A stretch of DNA of 64,000 nucleotides from contig CAMQZC010000008.1 of NCBI GenBank assembly GCA_947039485.1, forward strand, positions 20,879 to 84,878, written 5' to 3'. The DNA comes from an uncultured Verrucomicrobiales bacterium (lineage in GTDB: Bacteria > Verrucomicrobiota > Verrucomicrobiia > Verrucomicrobiales > Akkermansiaceae). Position numbers and translations under genes: made by a program. Positions within the stretch are counted from its first letter, which is position 1, and every line of letters starts with the position of its first letter. The notes under the pieces are model-generated. The model saw only the letters and a list, made by a program, of their open reading frames with translations, was not told the origin of the DNA and made no database searches. This document shows positions 3,024-64,000 of this stretch, one piece after another.

Positions 3024-4322
3024 ATGATCAGCAGCACTATCCAGCCACGCCCCGAGCGATCCCTGTACATGGGTTGCTTTGCCGCGCCTGCGATTGAGCA
3101 AATACGCGTAGCTTTCATCGGGATGGGGAGACGCGCCCAGCATCTCAGCACCCTGCTCGCCCCCATGGAGGGTGTGAGTATCGTGGGCATCTGCGACATC
3201 AAGCCCGAGCGCACGGAGGAGGCCTTGTCCATCCTCCATGAGCTAGCTGAGCCCTCTGCCACCTGCTACGGTAAGGATGAGCTGGACTACCAACGCATGC
3301 TAGCTGAGCTCAAACCTGATGCGGTCTTTATCACCGTGGGTTGGAACCATCACGCGACGGTCGCCTGCGCCTGCATGGAAGCAGGTGCCCATGCCTTTGT
3401 CGAGGTACCCCTCGCTACCTCCATCAAGGATCTCTGGCAGATTGTTGATAGCTCTGAGAAGCATCAACGCCACTGCATGATGATGGAGAATGCTAACTAC
3501 GGCCGTCACGAGCTACTCTTTCTCAACATGGTGCGCCTCGGTCTCATCGGGGAACCCGTGCATGCGGAGGGAGCCTACATCCATGACCTGCGCTTCACCC
3601 TGACGGATGACAATCGCACTGAGTCCGAGTGGCGCACGCGCCACTACTTGCATCGCAATGGCAATCTTTACCCCACCCACGGGCTAGGCTCGCTCTCTCA
3701 ATATATGAATCTGGGGAGAGGCTGCGACAGCTTCTCTCACCTCGTCTCTATGTCGAGCAGCTCAAGGGGCTTTGGAAACTACAGCAGCGAGCACTTCCCT
3801 GCGGATCATGAGTGGAACAGTCAGCCCTTTGCCTGTGGCGATATCAACACCTCTATCATCCAGACCTGCATGGGGCGCAGCATCATGCTGCAATGGGATG
3901 AGTGCAGCATGCGTCCCTACACGCGACACAACTTTATCCAAGGCACACGAGGTATCCTCGCAGGCTACCCCACGCGCGTCATCTCCGAGCTCCTCGGTGC
4001 CAAGGAGCACGATGATTGGACTCAGGGGGAGGCCCTGGAGGCTATCTATAAGCAGTATGATCACCCCCTCTGGAAGAGGCTGGGCGCACGTGGCGAGGAG
4101 TTAGCTGGCAAGCGAGCTCGCGACTACATCATGCTCAGTCGCATTGTCCACTGCCTGCGCAGGGGAGAGCCCCTCGACCAGAACGTCTATGAGGGAGCCT
4201 ACTGGTCATCAGTCGCCGAGCTCAGCGAGCGCTCTGTGGCGGCCGCTGGAGAGCCTGCTAGCTTCCCCGATTTCACGCGTGGCGACTGGCGCAAGACGCC
4301 TGGTATCATCATCCACGACTAA
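3024..4322 (+). CDS. Gfo/Idh/MocA family oxidoreductase, GH109-like
   Basis: N-terminal Rossmann motif IRVAFIGMGRRAQHL; FVEVPLA; RNGNLYPTHGLGSLSQYM, typical of the GH109 family. Confidence 0.8.
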   Translation: MISSTIQPRPERSLYMGCFAAPAIEQIRVAFIGMGRRAQHLSTLLAPMEGVSIVGICDIKPERTEEALSILHELAEPSATCYGKDELDYQRMLAELKPDAVFITVGWNHHATVACACMEAGAHAFVEVPLATSIKDLWQIVDSSEKHQRHCMMMENANYGRHELLFLNMVRLGLIGEPVHAEGAYIHDLRFTLTDDNRTESEWRTRHYLHRNGNLYPTHGLGSLSQYMNLGRGCDSFSHLVSMSSSSRGFGNYSSEHFPADHEWNSQPFACGDINTSIIQTCMGRSIMLQWDECSMRPYTRHNFIQGTRGILAGYPTRVISELLGAKEHDDWTQGEALEAIYKQYDHPLWKRLGARGEELAGKRARDYIMLSRIVHCLRRGEPLDQNVYEGAYWSSVAELSERSVAAAGEPASFPDFTRGDWRKTPGIIIHD

Positions 4323-4412
4323 TTCCGTATAGTTACCCTACCCCCTCTGGGCTGGGTGATTTTCTCGAGGCCTTCTATTTGAGTACTTTCTCGATCTCAT
4401 ATATGATGAGCT

Positions 4413-4982
4413 GTGATGACTACATCCACACGAGATACACAAATTGGCGTGAGCTATATGCTGCGAGCAACCGCAGCAGCCACGATAAGCGCAAAGGTCG
4501 GCAAGGTGACCTATACACTAGCCAGACACACAGGAGACGAGAGTGCTCTATTCTTCATCTCTCCTGCCACACAGGTTACGATTGAGCATGAGGGCGATTT
4601 TGTCTTAACCTATTGTTTTAAAGGAGCCTTCGCGTCTGCTTCAGGCGAAGGCGCAAAAAGAAATGCATCACTCCAGCGAGTTGAACTAACCGATAACAGC
4701 CATCTCCTACTTGAAGGAAGCATGTACTATGTCCTGCCCCCCTCAGCGGCACTCAAACTAACGGGCTGGGTCAATCCTCAGACCGATAGAGTATGCACCT
4801 GCGAACTGGAGCTCAACCCAGGGGCACGAGTTGACTGGTCAGCTCTAGCTAGCGTCTGCATCGACGGTGGCACCCTACCAGTCGAAATTGCCCAAGGCTC
4901 AGCTGAGGTCTACGCCATCCGCTGGACAGGACAAAACACGCTCATCAACCACGCGTACTCCGTCAAACTAACAAGCAACTAA
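4413..4982 (+). CDS. Hypothetical protein, possible phage-structural-like protein
   Basis: 189-aa ORF immediately followed by the ORF at 4984 (1-nt gap). Confidence 0.5.
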   Translation: MMTTSTRDTQIGVSYMLRATAAATISAKVGKVTYTLARHTGDESALFFISPATQVTIEHEGDFVLTYCFKGAFASASGEGAKRNASLQRVELTDNSHLLLEGSMYYVLPPSAALKLTGWVNPQTDRVCTCELELNPGARVDWSALASVCIDGGTLPVEIAQGSAEVYAIRWTGQNTLINHAYSVKLTSN

Positions 4983-6195: not shown

Positions 6196-6978
6196 TTACT
6201 TACGCGCGAAGAAGTCACGCAGATTGGAGAGGTCGCTTGGCACAGTCTCATCAGCTCGGGCGATAGCCTCACGCTGGACGACGGCTATGTCTTGGACGCC
6301 CTTGCTAGCAAGAGCAATCATCTGAGCCATCTCATCAGGGGTAAAGACAGCCTCCTCACCAGAGCCCTGCAGCTCGACAAACTCACCGGCATCAGTCATG
6401 ACAACATTCATGTCAACCTCCGCATCACGGTCCTCTACGTAGCAAAGGTCAAGCAGGACGGTGCCCTCGCACTTCCCAACGGAGACCGCGGAGATGAGCT
6501 TCTTGAGGGGACTTTTCACAAGGAGACCCTTTGATACGAGCCGATTGAGGGCGATAGCGAGGGCGACTGTTGCGCCCGTGATGCTAGCGGTACGTGTACC
6601 ACCATCAGCCTGCAGGACATCACAGTCAATCCAGATGGTACGTGGCCCGAGGGCTTCTAAATCAACTGCCGCACGGAGACTACGGCCAATAAGTCGCTGA
6701 ATCTCAACAGAGCGACCATCAACACGGCCAGAGGTGCTATCGCGACGCTTGCGATCGAGCGTGGAGTAAGGCAGCATGGCGTACTCAGCAGTGAGCCAGC
6801 CACCGCTGACGCGCTGATTCTTCATCCAGCGTGGCACATCTTCTTCAATGGTCACCGCGCAAATCACGCGTGTGTCACCAAAGCAGGCAATTACGGAGGC
6901 TGAGGCGTGGGGAGCCACGTCTAGGATAAACTCAAGGGGGCGCATCTGATCGAGGCTACGGTCATCGTGTCGTTTCAT
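6196..6978 (-). CDS. rph: Ribonuclease PH
   Basis: RPLEFILDVAPHASASVIACFGDTRVICAVT...AEYAMLPYSTLDRKRRDS...EIQRLIGRSLRAAVD; start set at MKRHDD because a promoter-like element lies just upstream (the ORF track starts at 6996). Confidence 0.95.
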   Translation of the reverse strand: MKRHDDRSLDQMRPLEFILDVAPHASASVIACFGDTRVICAVTIEEDVPRWMKNQRVSGGWLTAEYAMLPYSTLDRKRRDSTSGRVDGRSVEIQRLIGRSLRAAVDLEALGPRTIWIDCDVLQADGGTRTASITGATVALAIALNRLVSKGLLVKSPLKKLISAVSVGKCEGTVLLDLCYVEDRDAEVDMNVVMTDAGEFVELQGSGEEAVFTPDEMAQMIALASKGVQDIAVVQREAIARADETVPSDLSNLRDFFARK

Positions 6979-56191: not shown

Positions 56192-59100
56192 TTATTTCAT
56201 ACCTAGCTCATCACGAAGGAATGGCGCGGTGACGCTCTTCTTGCTCGCAGCTACATGAGCTACTCGACCTTGGGAGATAATCACCCCCCCCTGCTCCCCT
56301 GCCTCGGGGCCAAGGTCAATCATGTAATCAGCCTCCGCGATAAGCTCTAGATTGTGCTCAATGACCACGACGGTATTCCCCATCTCGACGAGACGACGCA
56401 ACACCCCGATAAGCAAGCGTACATCATGCGGATGCAGCCCAATACTGGGCTCCTCGATGAGGTAGAGATCCTGCGGCATCGCTAGCCCTTTCTTGATGGC
56501 AGTCATGGCGGCGCGCCTCCCCTTGATGAGCTCAGCAACAAGCTTAATGCGCTGCGCCTCACCTCCTGAGAGGGTATTGCTGGCCTGCCCAAGGCTGAGG
56601 TAGCCAAGCCCTGTCTCGCAAAGCAGCTTCAGGGGGTCGGCAAGTCGGGGCTGTGAAGCAAAGTACTCAGCGGCATCTTCCATGCTCATCTCAAGCACCT
56701 CAGCAATATTCTTCCCCTTGTATCGGGCTTGCAAGGTGCGCGAGTTGTAGCGCGCCCCTCGACAGCTCTCACAGAGTACGGAGCACGGAGGCAGGAAATC
56801 CATCTCCTGCTTTTGCATGCCTGTACCCTTGCAGCTCTCACAGTTACCAGAGGGGGTATTGAAGGAGAATCTCCCAGCATCAAAGCCGAGGCGCTTCGCA
56901 TCTGGAGAGCTAGCAAAGAGCTTGCGTATCTCATCAAAGATGCCAATGTAGGTTGCAGGGGTCGATCGAGGGGTCTTGCCGATAGGACTTTGGTCGACTT
57001 GATAGAGGGCTCGCAGACTATCCAGCCCCTTGCTGCTCTTCCAGAGGTCGCGCTGCTCGGCAGGCAGTTTAGCCCCTAGTGCCTCACGGACAGCTGGTCC
57101 GAGGCTACCGATAATCAGAGAGCTCTTGCCTGCGCCTGAGGGACCTGTAACAACACTGAAGCGCGCACGCGGAATTTTAAGATTAACATCCTTGAGGTTA
57201 TGCAGGCAGCAGCCTTTGAGCTCAAGGTAATCTACTCCCCGAATGGGCAGGTACTTGCCGCAGTAGGGGTGCTTTTTCTGAGCTTGGTAGGCGAGGGCTA
57301 GCCCTGTGATGGAGTCTGGCATTTGGGAGATTTGCTCAAAGCGGCCTTGCGCGATGATTTCTCCACCATGGATGCCAGCCCCTGGACCGAGGTCGATGAT
57401 GTGATCGGCCTGCTTCATAGTATCGATGTCATGCTCGACGACGAGGAGGGTATTGCCGCGCGACTTGAGCTCAGCTAGCGTGTGAAGCAGCCGCTGGTTG
57501 TCCTTGGGGTGCAACCCGATGGTAGGCTCATCAAGGACGTAGAGGACACCACGCAGGGCTGAGCCGAGCTGCGCGGCAAGTCGGATGCGCTGGGTCTCAC
57601 CACCTGAGAGAGTCGTAGCTGAGCGATCCAGAGAGAGGTAGCCAAGCCCGACGCGCTCCAAGAAGAGGAGTCTCTGCTCAATCTCAAGCATGACATTGCG
57701 CGCAATATCACCCTCGCGGCCTTCAAAGTGCCAGCCCTTGATGAGGCTGAGAGCCGCCGTGGCATCCAGAGAACCTAGCGAGGCGATATTGCAATCAAAG
57801 AGCGTTACGCCCAAGGCAAAGGAATTGAGGCGCGCGCCCTGACAAGCTGGGCATATCTCTCGACGATCTTCCTTGAGCGCAGCTTTTTCTACATCGCGGT
57901 CATAGCGCAGCTCCATCTCTAGAGCAGAGAGTTTATCCTCCTCCTTGAGGCTGACTTTCGACACAAATCCGTGCCCGAGGCAGCGCATGCACCAGCCACG
58001 GGGAGAGTTGAAGGAGAAACTCGCAGGCTCAGGCTCAGGATAACTCTCACCACAGCTACCGCAGCTCAGGCGCGTACCCAGCAGCAGCTCGCGCTCAGCG
58101 ATGAGGAGGCGTACGAAGCCATCGCCCATTTGCAGGGCCCGATTAAGGCAGTCTTGGAGTCCGACATCGTCGCAGTCCTTGCCATTCATCCTGATGTGCC
58201 CCGACATGACTGAGAGCTCAGCGAGCACGATATCAATATCATGGTTAGCATAGCGGTCAAGAGGCTCAAAATCGCTCGGGCTCATGAGACGACCATCGGC
58301 GCGCAGCAGGGGGTATTTTTTCTTCTCAGCCCAGCGAGCAAGATCAGCGTAGTGACCTTTGCGGTTGCGCACAACGGGAGCAGCAAGCATGAGAGAGGCC
58401 GGCTTCTTCGCAAGCTCAGCTTGCAGCAGAACAAATATCTCCTCAGCAGAGCGTCTACCCACAGGCACGTGGCAATGAGGGCAGTGGGCTGTACCAAGCT
58501 TGGCGTAGAGCAGTCGCAAGAACTGCCATATCTCAGTAACCGTGCCAACCGTCGACTTGGATCCACCGCGCGAGCGGTTTTGCTCAATCGCCACAGTGGG
58601 GGGCAGTCCAGTGAGGCTATCCATATCCGGAGTCTCCATCTGCTCGGTGAATTGACGAGCGTAGGGGCTCATGACGTCCATGAATCGCTTTTGCCCCTCG
58701 GCAAAGATGATATCAAAGGCCAGCGTACTCTTCCCACTACCAGAAAGACCCGTGACAACGGTCATCTCATTGCGGCGGATGTCCACGTCAATATTCTTGA
58801 GCTGATGGTGACGTGCACCACGCAGGGAGATGCAGTCCGCTATCATTGTCTCATGCTCACTAGGCAGGGTAGAGATCGGGGCAGCCTTTGGCGTACCTTT
58901 GATACCCAGAGCATCAGCGAGGTAGGCATGGGTATAGCCCCTGCCCGACTCAGAGACCTGCTCAGGCGTACCTTGGGCGACAATTTGCCCGCCCTCACGT
59001 CCGCCCTCGGGGCCGAGATCGATCACGTAATCCGCACACTTGATGAGCTCGATATTATGCTCAATAACGAGCAGGGAATGACCCTCATCCACGAGGCGGT

Positions 59101-61690
59101 GAAAGACGCGCAGCAGCAGCTCAAGATCGCTAAAGTGGAGACCTGTACCCGGCTCATCGAGGATGAGCAGCTTTTTCTCACCCTCAGCCTCAGAGAGCAG
59201 GCGTGCGAGCTTGAGACGTTGATTCTCACCACCTGAGAGCGTATTGAGGGGCTGGCCGAGGCCTAGATGTCCAAGCCCGACATCAAGCAGAATCTGCAGG
59301 CGCGAAACAATGCGACGCGCACGCACATTAGACTCATTGGCAAAGAGTTCTTGGGCTTGTCGAACATCCAGCGCGAGCATCTCCGCCATGTTATAGCCCA
59401 GCAGTTGCAGGCTGAGAGCTTGGGGGCTGTATCGAGCACCCTCGCAGAGCGCGCAGGGGACAAAGATATCAGAGAGGAACTGCATCTCAACTTTCTCCTG
59501 ACCGAGACCCGCACAGCGAGCACAGCGACCATCGCCGCTATTGAACGAGAAGTAACCAGGCTTGAGCCCACGCGCGGCAGCAGCAGGCTCTGCCGCATAG
59601 AGGGCGCGGACATCCTCAAAGACGCCCATATAGACAGCTGGGGTCGAGCGCGGCGTGCGCACAATAGGGCTCTGATCGACAAGCAGCACATCAGAGAGCG
59701 CAGCCAAGCCATCAATGGAGTCCATGGACTGCTCAGCCTCATCATCTAGCGACCCGGGGTGCGCATGGCCATAGATGACTTGACAGGCGAGCGAGCTTTT
59801 ACCACTCCCCGAGACACCCGTGAGGCAGGCGTAGAGACCGAGGGGGATATCAACATCAAAATTGCGCAGGTTGTGGCAGTTCACCCCGCGCAGGCGCAGC
59901 ATCTTCTTGCTCTTGCGCCTCTTTTTTGGCAGGGCAATTTGACGCCTACCAGAAAGATACTGAGCCGTGATCGAGTCAGACTTCGCCAGCTCTGAGGGAG
60001 TGCCCGCAAAGACGAGATGCCCCCCAGCAGCCCCACTACCAGGGCCTAGATCTATGAGGTAATCAGCCGCACGCATGACAGATTCCTCATGCTCAACAAC
60101 AACAAGGCTATTGCCCCTCTCGGCGAGGCGGCGCATGGAGGCAATGAGACGCTCGGTATCGCGCGCATGCAAACCGACGGTGGGCTCATCGAGCACAAAG
60201 AGAGTCTCAGTGAGTGCCGCACCGAGGCATGCCGTAAGACTCACGCGCTCAATCTCCCCCCCCGAGAGGGAGCGTGTGAGGCGATTTGCCGCTATGTAGC
60301 CCAGTCCCACCTCACAAAGGTAGGCAACGCGGCTGCGAAACTCACGTGCCGCCTGCTGGAGGCTGCGATCATCACCCAGTCGAGGCAGCACCTGCTCATC
60401 GAGCCATGGCAGTAGCTCATCCATGGGCATCGCCTGCAGCTCAGGCACCGTCTTGGCGCCTACCGTAAAGGCCAGAGCCTCGGGGCGCAGCCGCCCACCA
60501 TGGCAGGATGAGCAAACCGAGTAGACGCGGTAGTAGCCGAGAAAAACACGCACGCTCATCTTGTGGGCGTGCTTCTCCATATCGGCAAATATCCCATCAA
60601 AGCCATACCAAAGCCCCTGTGCGCTAGCCTCCCATGGGTCAAGCTCAGCAGCCTCTCCATGGATGACCCAAGCACGCTCATCATCACGCAGCTTCTCCCA
60701 AGCAATCTTGAGGCGCACAGCCTTGCGCTTGCGATTAGCGGCAATGAGATCATCATAGCACGCCGAGAGCGTCGCCGAGCTGAGCATCTTGAGAGCCCCA
60801 TCCGCAATGCTTTTATCAGCAATCACGCCACGCGTATAATCGTAGGAGATAGAGCGACCATAGCCCTTGCAGTCGGGGCATGCACCCAAGGGAGAATTAC
60901 CAGAAAAAAGACCAGGGCGAGGCTCTAGCAAGGGATACCAGTCCGCGCGATAGGAGCTCGTAGGCTGCCAAATCCCCTCCTGTGAGAGCAGGGAGATATG
61001 CAGCACATCCTGCCCAAGACGCATGGCCGTCTCCATCGCCTCCATGAGACGCTGGCGGTTCACATCGCTGATTTTCACGCGGTCTTGGATAAGCATCCAA
61101 GCACCCTCAGGCATGGAGCTGAGGCTAGAGAGCCGCTTCACCTCCCCATCCAGCAGCACACGGAGATAACCTTGCCCCTCAAGAGCTTGACTCATCTCAT
61201 CAAAGCTGCCAACAGGCTCAATCTCAAAGCAGATGAGAGCATCCACCCCCAGCGCAGCCTCAAGCAGACGCAGCACCACGGACTGAGCAGACTCCGGGCG
61301 TATGAGATTACCCTGCGCATCATGACCAATGGCGAGGCGTGCAAAGATGAGCTTGAGATACTCATTGAGCGCAGTCATCGTGCCCACCGTAGAGCGAGAG
61401 TTCTTCACCGAATTGCGCTGACCCAGCGCAATGGCAGGCGGGACATTCTCGAGCGAATCCACATCGGGGCGGCTCATCCTATCCATGAACTGTCGCACAT
61501 AGGGGGAGAAGGTCTCGACATAGCGGCGCTGCCCCTCTGCGTAGAGCGTACTCATCGCCAGCGAGCTCTTACCACTACCGCTGGGACCTGTCACCACGCT
61601 AATACCGCGCAGGGGCAAGTCCACATCAATGGACTTCAAATTATGCTCACGCGCCCCACGAATCTGGATAAAACCAGCCTTAGTCTTCAT
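56192..61690 (-). CDS. uvrA: Excinuclease ABC subunit A, duplicated/fused form (1832 aa)
   Basis: Four Walker A motifs (GPSGSGKSS, GVSGSGKSS, GLSGSGKST, GPSGAGKSS) and four LSGGE signatures; CxxC zinc-binding segments in both halves. Confidence 0.95.
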   Translation of the reverse strand: MKTKAGFIQIRGAREHNLKSIDVDLPLRGISVVTGPSGSGKSSLAMSTLYAEGQRRYVETFSPYVRQFMDRMSRPDVDSLENVPPAIALGQRNSVKNSRSTVGTMTALNEYLKLIFARLAIGHDAQGNLIRPESAQSVVLRLLEAALGVDALICFEIEPVGSFDEMSQALEGQGYLRVLLDGEVKRLSSLSSMPEGAWMLIQDRVKISDVNRQRLMEAMETAMRLGQDVLHISLLSQEGIWQPTSSYRADWYPLLEPRPGLFSGNSPLGACPDCKGYGRSISYDYTRGVIADKSIADGALKMLSSATLSACYDDLIAANRKRKAVRLKIAWEKLRDDERAWVIHGEAAELDPWEASAQGLWYGFDGIFADMEKHAHKMSVRVFLGYYRVYSVCSSCHGGRLRPEALAFTVGAKTVPELQAMPMDELLPWLDEQVLPRLGDDRSLQQAAREFRSRVAYLCEVGLGYIAANRLTRSLSGGEIERVSLTACLGAALTETLFVLDEPTVGLHARDTERLIASMRRLAERGNSLVVVEHEESVMRAADYLIDLGPGSGAAGGHLVFAGTPSELAKSDSITAQYLSGRRQIALPKKRRKSKKMLRLRGVNCHNLRNFDVDIPLGLYACLTGVSGSGKSSLACQVIYGHAHPGSLDDEAEQSMDSIDGLAALSDVLLVDQSPIVRTPRSTPAVYMGVFEDVRALYAAEPAAAARGLKPGYFSFNSGDGRCARCAGLGQEKVEMQFLSDIFVPCALCEGARYSPQALSLQLLGYNMAEMLALDVRQAQELFANESNVRARRIVSRLQILLDVGLGHLGLGQPLNTLSGGENQRLKLARLLSEAEGEKKLLILDEPGTGLHFSDLELLLRVFHRLVDEGHSLLVIEHNIELIKCADYVIDLGPEGGREGGQIVAQGTPEQVSESGRGYTHAYLADALGIKGTPKAAPISTLPSEHETMIADCISLRGARHHQLKNIDVDIRRNEMTVVTGLSGSGKSTLAFDIIFAEGQKRFMDVMSPYARQFTEQMETPDMDSLTGLPPTVAIEQNRSRGGSKSTVGTVTEIWQFLRLLYAKLGTAHCPHCHVPVGRRSAEEIFVLLQAELAKKPASLMLAAPVVRNRKGHYADLARWAEKKKYPLLRADGRLMSPSDFEPLDRYANHDIDIVLAELSVMSGHIRMNGKDCDDVGLQDCLNRALQMGDGFVRLLIAERELLLGTRLSCGSCGESYPEPEPASFSFNSPRGWCMRCLGHGFVSKVSLKEEDKLSALEMELRYDRDVEKAALKEDRREICPACQGARLNSFALGVTLFDCNIASLGSLDATAALSLIKGWHFEGREGDIARNVMLEIEQRLLFLERVGLGYLSLDRSATTLSGGETQRIRLAAQLGSALRGVLYVLDEPTIGLHPKDNQRLLHTLAELKSRGNTLLVVEHDIDTMKQADHIIDLGPGAGIHGGEIIAQGRFEQISQMPDSITGLALAYQAQKKHPYCGKYLPIRGVDYLELKGCCLHNLKDVNLKIPRARFSVVTGPSGAGKSSLIIGSLGPAVREALGAKLPAEQRDLWKSSKGLDSLRALYQVDQSPIGKTPRSTPATYIGIFDEIRKLFASSPDAKRLGFDAGRFSFNTPSGNCESCKGTGMQKQEMDFLPPCSVLCESCRGARYNSRTLQARYKGKNIAEVLEMSMEDAAEYFASQPRLADPLKLLCETGLGYLSLGQASNTLSGGEAQRIKLVAELIKGRRAAMTAIKKGLAMPQDLYLIEEPSIGLHPHDVRLLIGVLRRLVEMGNTVVVIEHNLELIAEADYMIDLGPEAGEQGGVIISQGRVAHVAASKKSVTAPFLRDELGMK

Positions 61691-61729: not shown

Positions 61730-61840
61730 CGTATGTGTCTTGCTGCTGGTATCGGGCTGCAGCAAGCGAGCTCAAGATGATTCTGATTTATTTCTCAGGC
61801 GTACTTTTCTTCATCAATTGATTTAGACGATTCTCAACAT
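61730..61840. repeat. Direct repeat copy 1 (acyltransferase 3' end and downstream flank)
   Basis: cgtatgtgtcttgctgctggtatcgggctgcagcaagcgagctcaagatgattctg... matches 63896-64000 with about 3 mismatches. Confidence 0.95.
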
Positions 61841-63821
61841 GCTTGATCACAAGATCTGATCCATCCACGGAAAAATGATCATCATCCCAATAGATAATTT
61901 CACCTTGATCTCCGTTTATTTTTAATTTGTGCTTATCGGGAAAGAAGAAATCCTCCACATCAACGACAGTGATTAATCCTTCCTTCTCCATATCATCCAA
62001 CAAGAGATTCGTTCGTTGACTTCTCTTTATATAGTCTGCGTAACTTGCTATATTTCCCGTATAATCTGGCGAGAACTTGTACGCGTATGTTCTTGCCTGC
62101 CTATACGCTTTCGAATCAAATCCTTGCTCTGGGCTCGGCTGCAAAACAATCAACGTTTTGCCCATCGCCTTAATAGCATGGGCAAATTGCCTTAAGCCGA
62201 CCTCCATGATACTTGCCGAATCAAGCAAATCGGGCTTCTGCTTATGCTTTAAAACAATCTTCATATAGGGTGGCTCATTATTAGCCCCCTCAATATATGA
62301 ATTTAATCGAGATGAGGCAATCACATAATCAATATTTTCCTGCCTTGACAACCACTCTAAAATTGCTTCCATACGCTCAGATGAGGTATTTCCCTTACCT
62401 ATAACATCTACATGTCTAGCTAAGAGACGCGACCTATTAATATAAAGGCCATTAATTTGATTACGCTCCGAATAAGCATTCATTGCAGACACATAATGCA
62501 TAGCATGACTATCCCCGATCAACACATAGCGAGGATTAACATCTTCGCCAAGCACTTTAAGAGCCTTCGATTCTTCCTCTTCTCCAGCGCTCTTCGGGTA
62601 GTCACCCAAAGTTGAATTTGGTAATTTCTTAAAACCATAGAAACTGCCATCATCTGTGACGATTATCCCCGAAGCCCTCGCTAACACGGGCACTTTTACC
62701 ACGAGCACAGCGTAACTGATGACGAACACCGACGAAAGAGAAGTGATAATCAGACCCCTTTTCAAACTCCAGTTTGTACTAAAACGCACAGGCATCTCCA
62801 CGTACCGCCAAGAGAGGTATGCCATCATCAAAGAAAGCAGAAAAACAGATGCCAGCCCCCATGGATTCTCAGAGTTAAAGCTGTAGTAATTCCAGTAAAC
62901 AATAAGCGGCCAGTGCCACAAGTATAATGAATAGGAAATTTTCCCAACAAAAACGAAAGGAGACGATTTGAGCAGCTTGCCAATCAGCCCGAAACAACCA
63001 TAACGAATGAGCAACGCCGTACCTAAAACAGGCGGTAAGGCCATCAATCCGGGGAACATCGTTGCATCATCATAGGCAAAAAAAGGAAGCACGCAGAGCA
63101 ACAAACCTAGATAGGCATAAATCTTGAAGGAAATCCCCTCCTCCGCGCTATTAACTCGAGGCCAGTAAGCCAGCAGCGACCCAGCCAAAAGCTCCCAGGC
63201 ACGCGTCGGTAATAAAAAGAAATTAAAGGTATCTGCACCAATAATATTACAGAAAATCGATAAGCCTAACGAAGCAAGCGCCAACACAGAGAGAACAACA
63301 AAGCTCCGCCTTATCCCCACACGAAAACAGAGCAACATCAGCAATGGAATAACCATATAAAACTGTTCCTCAACCCCTAAAGACCAAAGATGAAGCAAGG
63401 GATTATTAGCGCTATCTAGGTCAAAATATCCTGAATTCTTATAGAAAAACACATTCGTCACAAAGGCCCCGCTATACCTCGCCGCACGTAGTATCGACTC
63501 CAACCCCTCTCCAGCATAAAGAAAGAGTGATGAGAGCAAGACAGCCAGGATAAGAACCGCGTAAGCCGGAATAATACGCCGTATACGCTTACTATAGAAA
63601 TTAGCAATCGAGAACTGACCCTTCTTTGAGGAATTGAGAATCCCCTGCGTAATCAAATAGCCAGAAATTACAAAGAAAATATCAACACCTACATAACCGC
63701 CGGGGCAAAGCGAGGCAAGAATATGGTAAACAACGATGGGCAAGACCGCCAGCGTCCTAATACCATCGATATGCGGGTAATAATTTTTATGCAAGGTTTC
63801 CACATTACGCTCTGACGACAT
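61788..63821 (-). CDS. OafA/YrhL-type acyltransferase with C-terminal SGNH-like domain
   Basis: HIDGIRTLAVLPIVVYHI; GVDIFFVISGYLIT; LHLWSLGVEEQFY; SGNH-like LIGDSHAMHY and DDDHFSVDGSDL. Confidence 0.9.
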   Translation of the reverse strand: MSSERNVETLHKNYYPHIDGIRTLAVLPIVVYHILASLCPGGYVGVDIFFVISGYLITQGILNSSKKGQFSIANFYSKRIRRIIPAYAVLILAVLLSSLFLYAGEGLESILRAARYSGAFVTNVFFYKNSGYFDLDSANNPLLHLWSLGVEEQFYMVIPLLMLLCFRVGIRRSFVVLSVLALASLGLSIFCNIIGADTFNFFLLPTRAWELLAGSLLAYWPRVNSAEEGISFKIYAYLGLLLCVLPFFAYDDATMFPGLMALPPVLGTALLIRYGCFGLIGKLLKSSPFVFVGKISYSLYLWHWPLIVYWNYYSFNSENPWGLASVFLLSLMMAYLSWRYVEMPVRFSTNWSLKRGLIITSLSSVFVISYAVLVVKVPVLARASGIIVTDDGSFYGFKKLPNSTLGDYPKSAGEEEESKALKVLGEDVNPRYVLIGDSHAMHYVSAMNAYSERNQINGLYINRSRLLARHVDVIGKGNTSSERMEAILEWLSRQENIDYVIASSRLNSYIEGANNEPPYMKIVLKHKQKPDLLDSASIMEVGLRQFAHAIKAMGKTLIVLQPSPEQGFDSKAYRQARTYAYKFSPDYTGNIASYADYIKRSQRTNLLLDDMEKEGLITVVDVEDFFFPDKHKLKINGDQGEIIYWDDDHFSVDGSDLVIKHVENRLNQLMKKSTPEK

Positions 63822-63827
63822 GAGAGA

Positions 63828-63855
63828 ATTATAACTAAGACTAACTTAAAGTCAA
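63828..63855 (-). promoter_or_regulatory. Promoter abutting acyltransferase start codon
   Basis: Minus strand TTGACT-N16-TATAAT, 6 nt before ATG 63821. Confidence 0.65.
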
Positions 63856-63895
63856 TAGCAATACGCCATCACATACCCCTTGCAAAAAGGATCCC

Positions 63896-64000
63896 CGTAT
63901 GTGTCTTGCTACTGGTATCGGGCTGCAGCAAGCGAGCTCAAGAAAATTCTGATTTATTTCTCAGGCGTACTTTTCTTCATCAATTGATTTAGACGATTCT
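63896..64000. repeat. Direct repeat copy 2: start of a probable second acyltransferase copy running off the window
   Basis: Near-identical to 61730-61834, including the codons of the acyltransferase C-terminus. Confidence 0.9.

What the first reader, a model, noticed from the sequence alone, without database searches (positions are those of the whole stretch)
61730..64000. Surface acyltransferase flanked by near-identical direct repeats: edge of a tandem gene array
61730-61834 and 63896-64000 are nearly identical (about 3 differences), including the last coding stretch of the acyltransferase and its downstream flank, with a period of 2166 bp. The window ends inside what appears to be a second acyltransferase copy. 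Such pairs can recombine to alter O-acetylation of surface glycans.
Basis: partly seen in the sequence, partly recalled or inferred. Interest (0 to 1): 0.62.

Follow-up and report, generated by a model that had tools for sequence, protein, structure and literature searches.

The report
Tandem duplicate of a surface acyltransferase gene
The window ends where a short-read assembly broke inside a real head-to-tail duplication of one gene for a sugar-acetylating membrane enzyme; this is an ordinary gene duplication hidden by the assembly, with an untested possibility that copy number changes the cell surface.

Summary
In detail: 61730-61834 and 63896-64000 are 102/105 identical at a period of 2166 bp. 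The window also ends exactly at the end of its contig (C8). Three further facts explain the break. The last 55 bases of C8 equal 61780-61834. Contig C37 starts with exactly the 55 bases of 63837-63891. Ten other contig-end pairs in this genome share exactly 55 bases and none shares more. This is the footprint of a k=55 de Bruijn assembly that collapsed a 2112-bp repeat (61780-63891) holding the whole acyltransferase gene and its promoter. The simplest order is uvrA – acyltransferase – 54-bp linker – acyltransferase – C37 (ion channel, rpsA), so a second full copy almost certainly exists. Whether there are more than two is unknown, and exact identity of the copies cannot be read from a collapsed repeat. 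The gene encodes a 677-aa AT3-SGNH transmembrane O-acyltransferase of the OafA/OafB type with the tested catalytic motifs intact. It is AT-rich and has no close match in 76 genomes of the genus, suggesting recent acquisition. Recombinational copy-number change is plausible but untested. A wider pattern of repeat-flanked acyltransferases in the genus was tested and rejected. This is a known kind of event on a known gene family.

The parts
61788..63821 (-). AT3-SGNH O-acyltransferase gene, 677 aa (copy 1; the assembled sequence is the collapsed sequence of all copies)
   Evidence: ORF; PF01757 residues 18-337 and PF19040 residues 421-662, far over cut-offs; R22-X10-H33, GGYVGVD (41-47), R79xxR82, GDSH (436-439), D646xxH649
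61780..63891 (.). Collapsed repeat edge E (2112 bp): full gene plus 70 bp upstream of the annotated start
   Evidence: Its first 55 bases recur as the last 55 bases of contig C8 and its last 55 bases are the first 55 of contig C37
61730..61834 (.). Left copy of the 105-bp direct repeat (3' end of gene and its downstream flank)
63896..64000 (.). Right copy of the 105-bp direct repeat = start of the second duplication unit; runs to the contig end
63892..63945 (.). 54-bp unique linker between the two copies (holds 4 bp of new junction sequence and the 3' flank of copy 2 with three substitutions)
   Evidence: lies between the last 55-mer of E and the recurring first 55-mer of E
63828..63855 (-). 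Promoter-like TTGACT-16-TATAAT, 6 nt before the annotated ATG, inside the shared unit, so each copy would carry its own promoter
   Evidence: 11 of 12 consensus bases; the only such match in 64 kb, 0.02 expected
61739..61767 (-). Hairpin-forming 3' flank of the gene, present in both copies (the one change within the stem keeps a G-U pair)
   Evidence: z -2.28 (copy 1) and -0.97 (copy 2); weak, no T-run
56192..61690 (-). Left neighbour: uvrA, double-length (1832 aa)

Best explanation
The genome carries at least two head-to-tail copies (period 2166 bp) of a gene for an AT3-SGNH transmembrane O-acyltransferase, between a double-length uvrA and an ion-channel gene. SHOWN: the repeat, its period, the 54-bp linker joining the end of one unit to the start of the next, the exact 55-base overlaps at both contig ends, the protein family and its intact catalytic motifs. 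INFERRED: the second copy is full length and near-identical; the assembler collapsed the copies and broke the contig there. INFERRED from the family: the AT3 domain passes an acetyl (or other acyl) group from cytoplasmic acyl-CoA across the inner membrane to the periplasmic SGNH domain, which puts it on a surface or periplasmic glycan. Each copy carries its own promoter-like site, so duplication probably raises dosage. RecA-dependent exchange between about 2.1-kb copies could delete or add copies (possible, not shown).
For: Window ends at contig end. Last 55 b of C8 = 61780-61834; first 55 b of C37 = 63837-63891. Ten other contig-end pairs share exactly 55 b, none more, so k=55. No other place in the genome holds either 55-mer. 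The 3 mismatches end at 61779 and the shared edge begins at 61780, as a graph vertex should. 27 of 76 contig termini lie in tandem arrays against 10 of 300 random segments, so tandem repeats are what breaks this assembly. Protein. Each copy has its promoter inside the unit. One RecA gene is present.
Against: No read, coverage or long-read data. Sequence identity of the two coding copies is directly visible for only 47 coding bases; short-read assemblers merge close variants, and the non-coding flank already shows 3 differences in 50 bp. The genome may come from a metagenome, so copy number may differ between cells.
Confidence: 0.9

Rival explanations
1. Only a short repeat (about 105 bp, or a truncated gene remnant) follows the linker; there is no second full acyltransferase.
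For: Only 105 bp of the second unit is assembled; short gene remnants flank some acyltransferases in relatives.
Against: It needs two missing contigs: one continuing from C8's end and one leading into C37's start. Neither 55-mer occurs in any other contig of a 95%-complete assembly, while one collapsed 2112-bp edge closes both ends at once.
Confidence: 0.06
2. The linker is the junction of a circular (excised) form of the unit, that is, a mobile gene circle, not a chromosomal tandem copy.
For: A circle of the unit would also give the end-to-start junction; the gene is AT-rich and apparently acquired.
Against: No recombinase lies in the unit. The linker copy of the 3' flank has three substitutions against the chromosomal copy, which a fresh circle would not have.
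Confidence: 0.02
3. Strain mixture: some cells carry one copy and others two or more, the assembly being a composite.
For: The genome has 38 contigs with many unresolved tandem arrays; duplications of this size are usually unstable (established knowledge; for a larger dynamic duplication see PMC9946442).
Against: No read data to test it; it is compatible with, not an alternative to, a tandem duplication in at least part of the population.
Confidence: 0.25

Closest known systems
AT3-SGNH fused O-acetyltransferases (OafA/OafB of Salmonella, OatA of Staphylococcus; PF01757 + PF19040)
   Same: Same two domains in the same order, R-X10-H, GG-Y-xGV-D, RxxR, GDS and DxxH motifs as set out in PMC7448272; profile and fold match to the OafB SGNH structure 6se1.
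   Different: Acceptor glycan unknown; 28-35% identical to the 24 relatives aligned; lies beside uvrA, not in an O-antigen or capsule locus; duplicated in tandem.
RecA-dependent tandem duplications with variable copy number (e.g. the 208.6-kb duplication of Burkholderia thailandensis, PMC9946442)
   Same: Direct head-to-tail copies that can give homology for later loss or gain of copies.
   Different: Here the unit is 2.2 kb and one gene, without insertion sequences; no copy-number variation has been seen.
Phase-variable AT3 acyltransferases (OafB of S. Typhi, oafA of Haemophilus; reviewed in PMC9558356)
   Same: Same enzyme family; expression of surface acetylation is switched in populations.
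   Different: The review describes on/off expression switching (epigenetic for S. Typhi); no such signal was identified here, and copy number would be the variable.

Membership tests
AT3-SGNH fused O-acyltransferase | AT3 membrane domain (PF01757) followed by SGNH domain (PF19040) in one chain | tested here: met
   104.8 bits (cut-off 31) and 111.1 bits (cut-off 27), residues 18-337 and 421-662
AT3-SGNH fused O-acyltransferase | TMH1 R/K-X10-H, TMH2 GG-F/Y-XGV-D and RxxR motifs | tested here: met
   R22...H33, G41-D47 (GGYVGVD), R79xxR82; motif definitions from PMC7448272
AT3-SGNH fused O-acyltransferase | SGNH block I (GDS) and block V (DxxH) catalytic triad | tested here: met
   GDSH 436-439, D646xxH649, with G436, S438, D646 and H649 invariant and D437 nearly so in the 25-sequence alignment
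AT3-SGNH fused O-acyltransferase | Helical membrane domain plus periplasmic alpha/beta SGNH fold | tested here: met
   AlphaFold2 mean pLDDT 82.7; Foldseek hits 6se1 and PatB; profile hit to 6se1, E 1.2e-9
AT3-SGNH fused O-acyltransferase | Acetyl transfer to a surface glycan | not testable with these tools
   needs an enzyme or glycan assay
Tandem gene duplication | End of one unit joined to start of an identical unit in direct orientation | tested here: met
   63837-64000 runs from the last 55 bases of the unit through 54 bp to its first 55 bases
Tandem gene duplication | Second full-length copy of the gene | tested here: inconclusive
   Implied by contig-end overlaps but not assembled
Phase-variable or copy-number-variable locus | Copy number differs between cells or strains | not testable with these tools
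   no reads; no other genome with this gene at DNA level is held in the genus

The most novel reading that the evidence does not exclude
The tandem pair is a dynamic copy-number switch: RecA exchange between about 2.1-kb near-identical units (or more than two of them) tunes surface glycan O-acetylation in this bacterium, with gene conversion keeping the coding copies alike while the flanks drift.
Probability: 0.07. Interest if true: 0.5.

Novelty: new member of a known kind. Interest (0 to 1): 0.17.

Why it matters
Mostly as a caution. A standard annotation of this assembly counts one acyltransferase where there are very probably at least two, and the contig ends show how to see such hidden duplications without reads. 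If copy number does vary, it would be a simple way to tune surface acetylation, which in other bacteria affects phage attachment and immune recognition.

Tried and rejected
(1) A genus-wide pattern of acyltransferase genes bracketed by direct repeats. Several relatives show such brackets: L016 75 bp, L123 65 bp, L124 94 bp, L019 43 bp, L209 43 bp. The repeats are of unrelated kinds (hairpin repeats, coding repeats that look ankyrin-like to me, a neighbouring-gene remnant), and control segments from elsewhere show direct repeats of the same spacing at a broadly similar rate (2 of 12 window segments and 7 of 34 others). Rejected as a pattern. (2) Collapsed tandem acyltransferases in relatives whose gene lies near a contig end: no contig terminus recurs inside the stretch fetched (for 8 of the 20 only one end was fetched). 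(3) Microhomology at the duplication borders (AGCTTCGTATG / AGCTCCTTATG, 9 of 11): 2% of random border pairs do as well; too weak. (4) Conserved synteny beside uvrA: no acyltransferase was found in the 5' flank of uvrA in the loci read from relatives; flanks were short in some.

Full report
OBSERVATION. The repeat is real: 105 bases, 61730-61834 and 63896-64000, three mismatches (61745, 61778, 61779), spacing 2166. It holds the last 47 bases of the acyltransferase ORF (61788-63821, minus strand, 677 aa) and 58 bases of its 3' flank. The mismatches are all outside the ORF.

WHY THE WINDOW STOPS THERE. The window is C8:20879-84878 of a genome of 38 contigs, and C8 is 84878 bases long, so the window ends at the contig end. 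The last 55 bases of C8 are identical to 61780-61834. A second contig, C37 (10,970 bp), begins with exactly the 55 bases of 63837-63891 and then diverges. To test what 55 means I took both ends of all 38 contigs. Ten other end pairs share exactly 55 bases and none shares more. This is what a de Bruijn assembly with a last k of 55 leaves behind. (That k=55 is a SPAdes default is from my own knowledge.) 27 of 76 contig termini lie in tandem arrays, against 10 of 300 random 400-base segments of the window, so tandem repetition is a main reason this assembly breaks.

WHAT FOLLOWS. The stretch 61780-63891 (2112 bp) is one collapsed graph edge E. It is entered from the uvrA side and from the linker 63892-63945, and left towards that same linker and towards C37. 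Since the linker starts at E's end and finishes at E's start in direct orientation, every passage through it is E-linker-E. No other contig carries either 55-mer. The simplest reading is uvrA - E - (linker - E)n - C37 with n at least 1. A short repeat without a second gene would need two further contigs that are not there. Two limits remain: n is unknown, and E may be a merged sequence of slightly different copies. The three differences in the 50-bp non-coding flank show that the duplication has had time to diverge, or that flanks drift while the coding part is kept alike; reads would decide.

THE GENE. Pfam finds Acyl_transf_3 (residues 18-337) and the SGNH domain fused to AT3 (421-662), both far over cut-off. 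The motifs described for fused AT3-SGNH enzymes in PMC7448272 that I tested are present: R22-X10-H33, GGYVGVD at 41-47, R79xxR82, GDSH at 436-439 and D646xxH649. A profile of 25 relatives finds the OafB SGNH structure 6se1 (E 1.2e-9). The predicted structure (mean pLDDT 82.7) has a helical membrane part and an SGNH part that matches 6se1 and the peptidoglycan O-acetyltransferase PatB. A TTGACT-16-TATAAT site lies 6 nt before the annotated ATG, inside the shared unit; it is the only such match in the window, 0.02 expected. It would give either a leaderless message or a slightly later start codon.

ORIGIN. The gene is 43% G+C between neighbours at 54-57%. No genome of the 76 searched in the genus, other than its own, has more than short DNA matches to it; the best relatives are 35-39% identical as proteins and do not sit beside uvrA in the loci read. 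The divergent ion-channel gene at the start of C37 also lacks close relatives in the genus (best 40%). A lineage-specific acquisition followed by tandem duplication is the likely history (inference). A distant paralogue on C4 is broken (frameshift and stop), so the duplicated locus holds the only intact AT3-SGNH gene found in this assembly.

MECHANISM. By family knowledge, the AT3 domain takes an acyl group from cytoplasmic acyl-CoA and delivers it through the membrane to the SGNH domain, which transfers it to a glycan. Two copies with their own promoter should raise dosage. With a RecA present the copies can recombine, as in the far larger B. thailandensis duplication (PMC9946442), but nothing here shows that they do.

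VERDICT. Observation confirmed; the second copy is very likely; the functional claim is untested. An ordinary tandem duplication of a known kind of gene, hidden by assembly.

Noticed in passing
G000:C4:34371-36309 (L006:6348-8322): A second AT3-SGNH gene of this genome, broken by a frameshift and an in-frame TAG; the only other SGNH-fused acyltransferase found.
   Followed up: partly
27 of 76 contig termini of G000 (L127-L202): Contig ends of this genome are strongly enriched in short tandem arrays (periods 8-145 bp), so the genome is rich in minisatellite-like repeats that break short-read assembly.
   Followed up: partly
56192-61690: UvrA of double length (1832 aa, two UvrA-like halves); a double-length UvrA model exists in NCBIfam (PRK00635, 1809 positions) but this protein scores below its cut-off.
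   Followed up: no
L116:297-4958 (G003, upstream of uvrA): Two adjacent paralogous ORFs (728 and 719 aa) with 96% identical 671-bp stretches: another tandem gene duplication in the genus.
   Followed up: no
L117:1-851 and 3850-4700 (G023): 851 bp repeated at 99.9% identity within 4.7 kb, in coding sequence that looks YD/Rhs-like by eye.
   Followed up: no
L016 (G046:C109): Acyltransferase gene bracketed by 75-bp hairpin-rich direct repeats (89%); similar TACGATGTACGA-type intergenic repeats occur in several relatives.
   Followed up: partly
L124:3986-4079 and 6226-6319 (G045): The 3' part of the gene before an acyltransferase recurs just after it (94 bp, 86%), as if the acyltransferase had been inserted with duplication of the neighbour's end.
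   Followed up: no
L121:1711-5658 (G058:C19): Open frame of 1316 aa with about 600 residues of no Pfam match in front of an AT3-SGNH protein.
   Followed up: no
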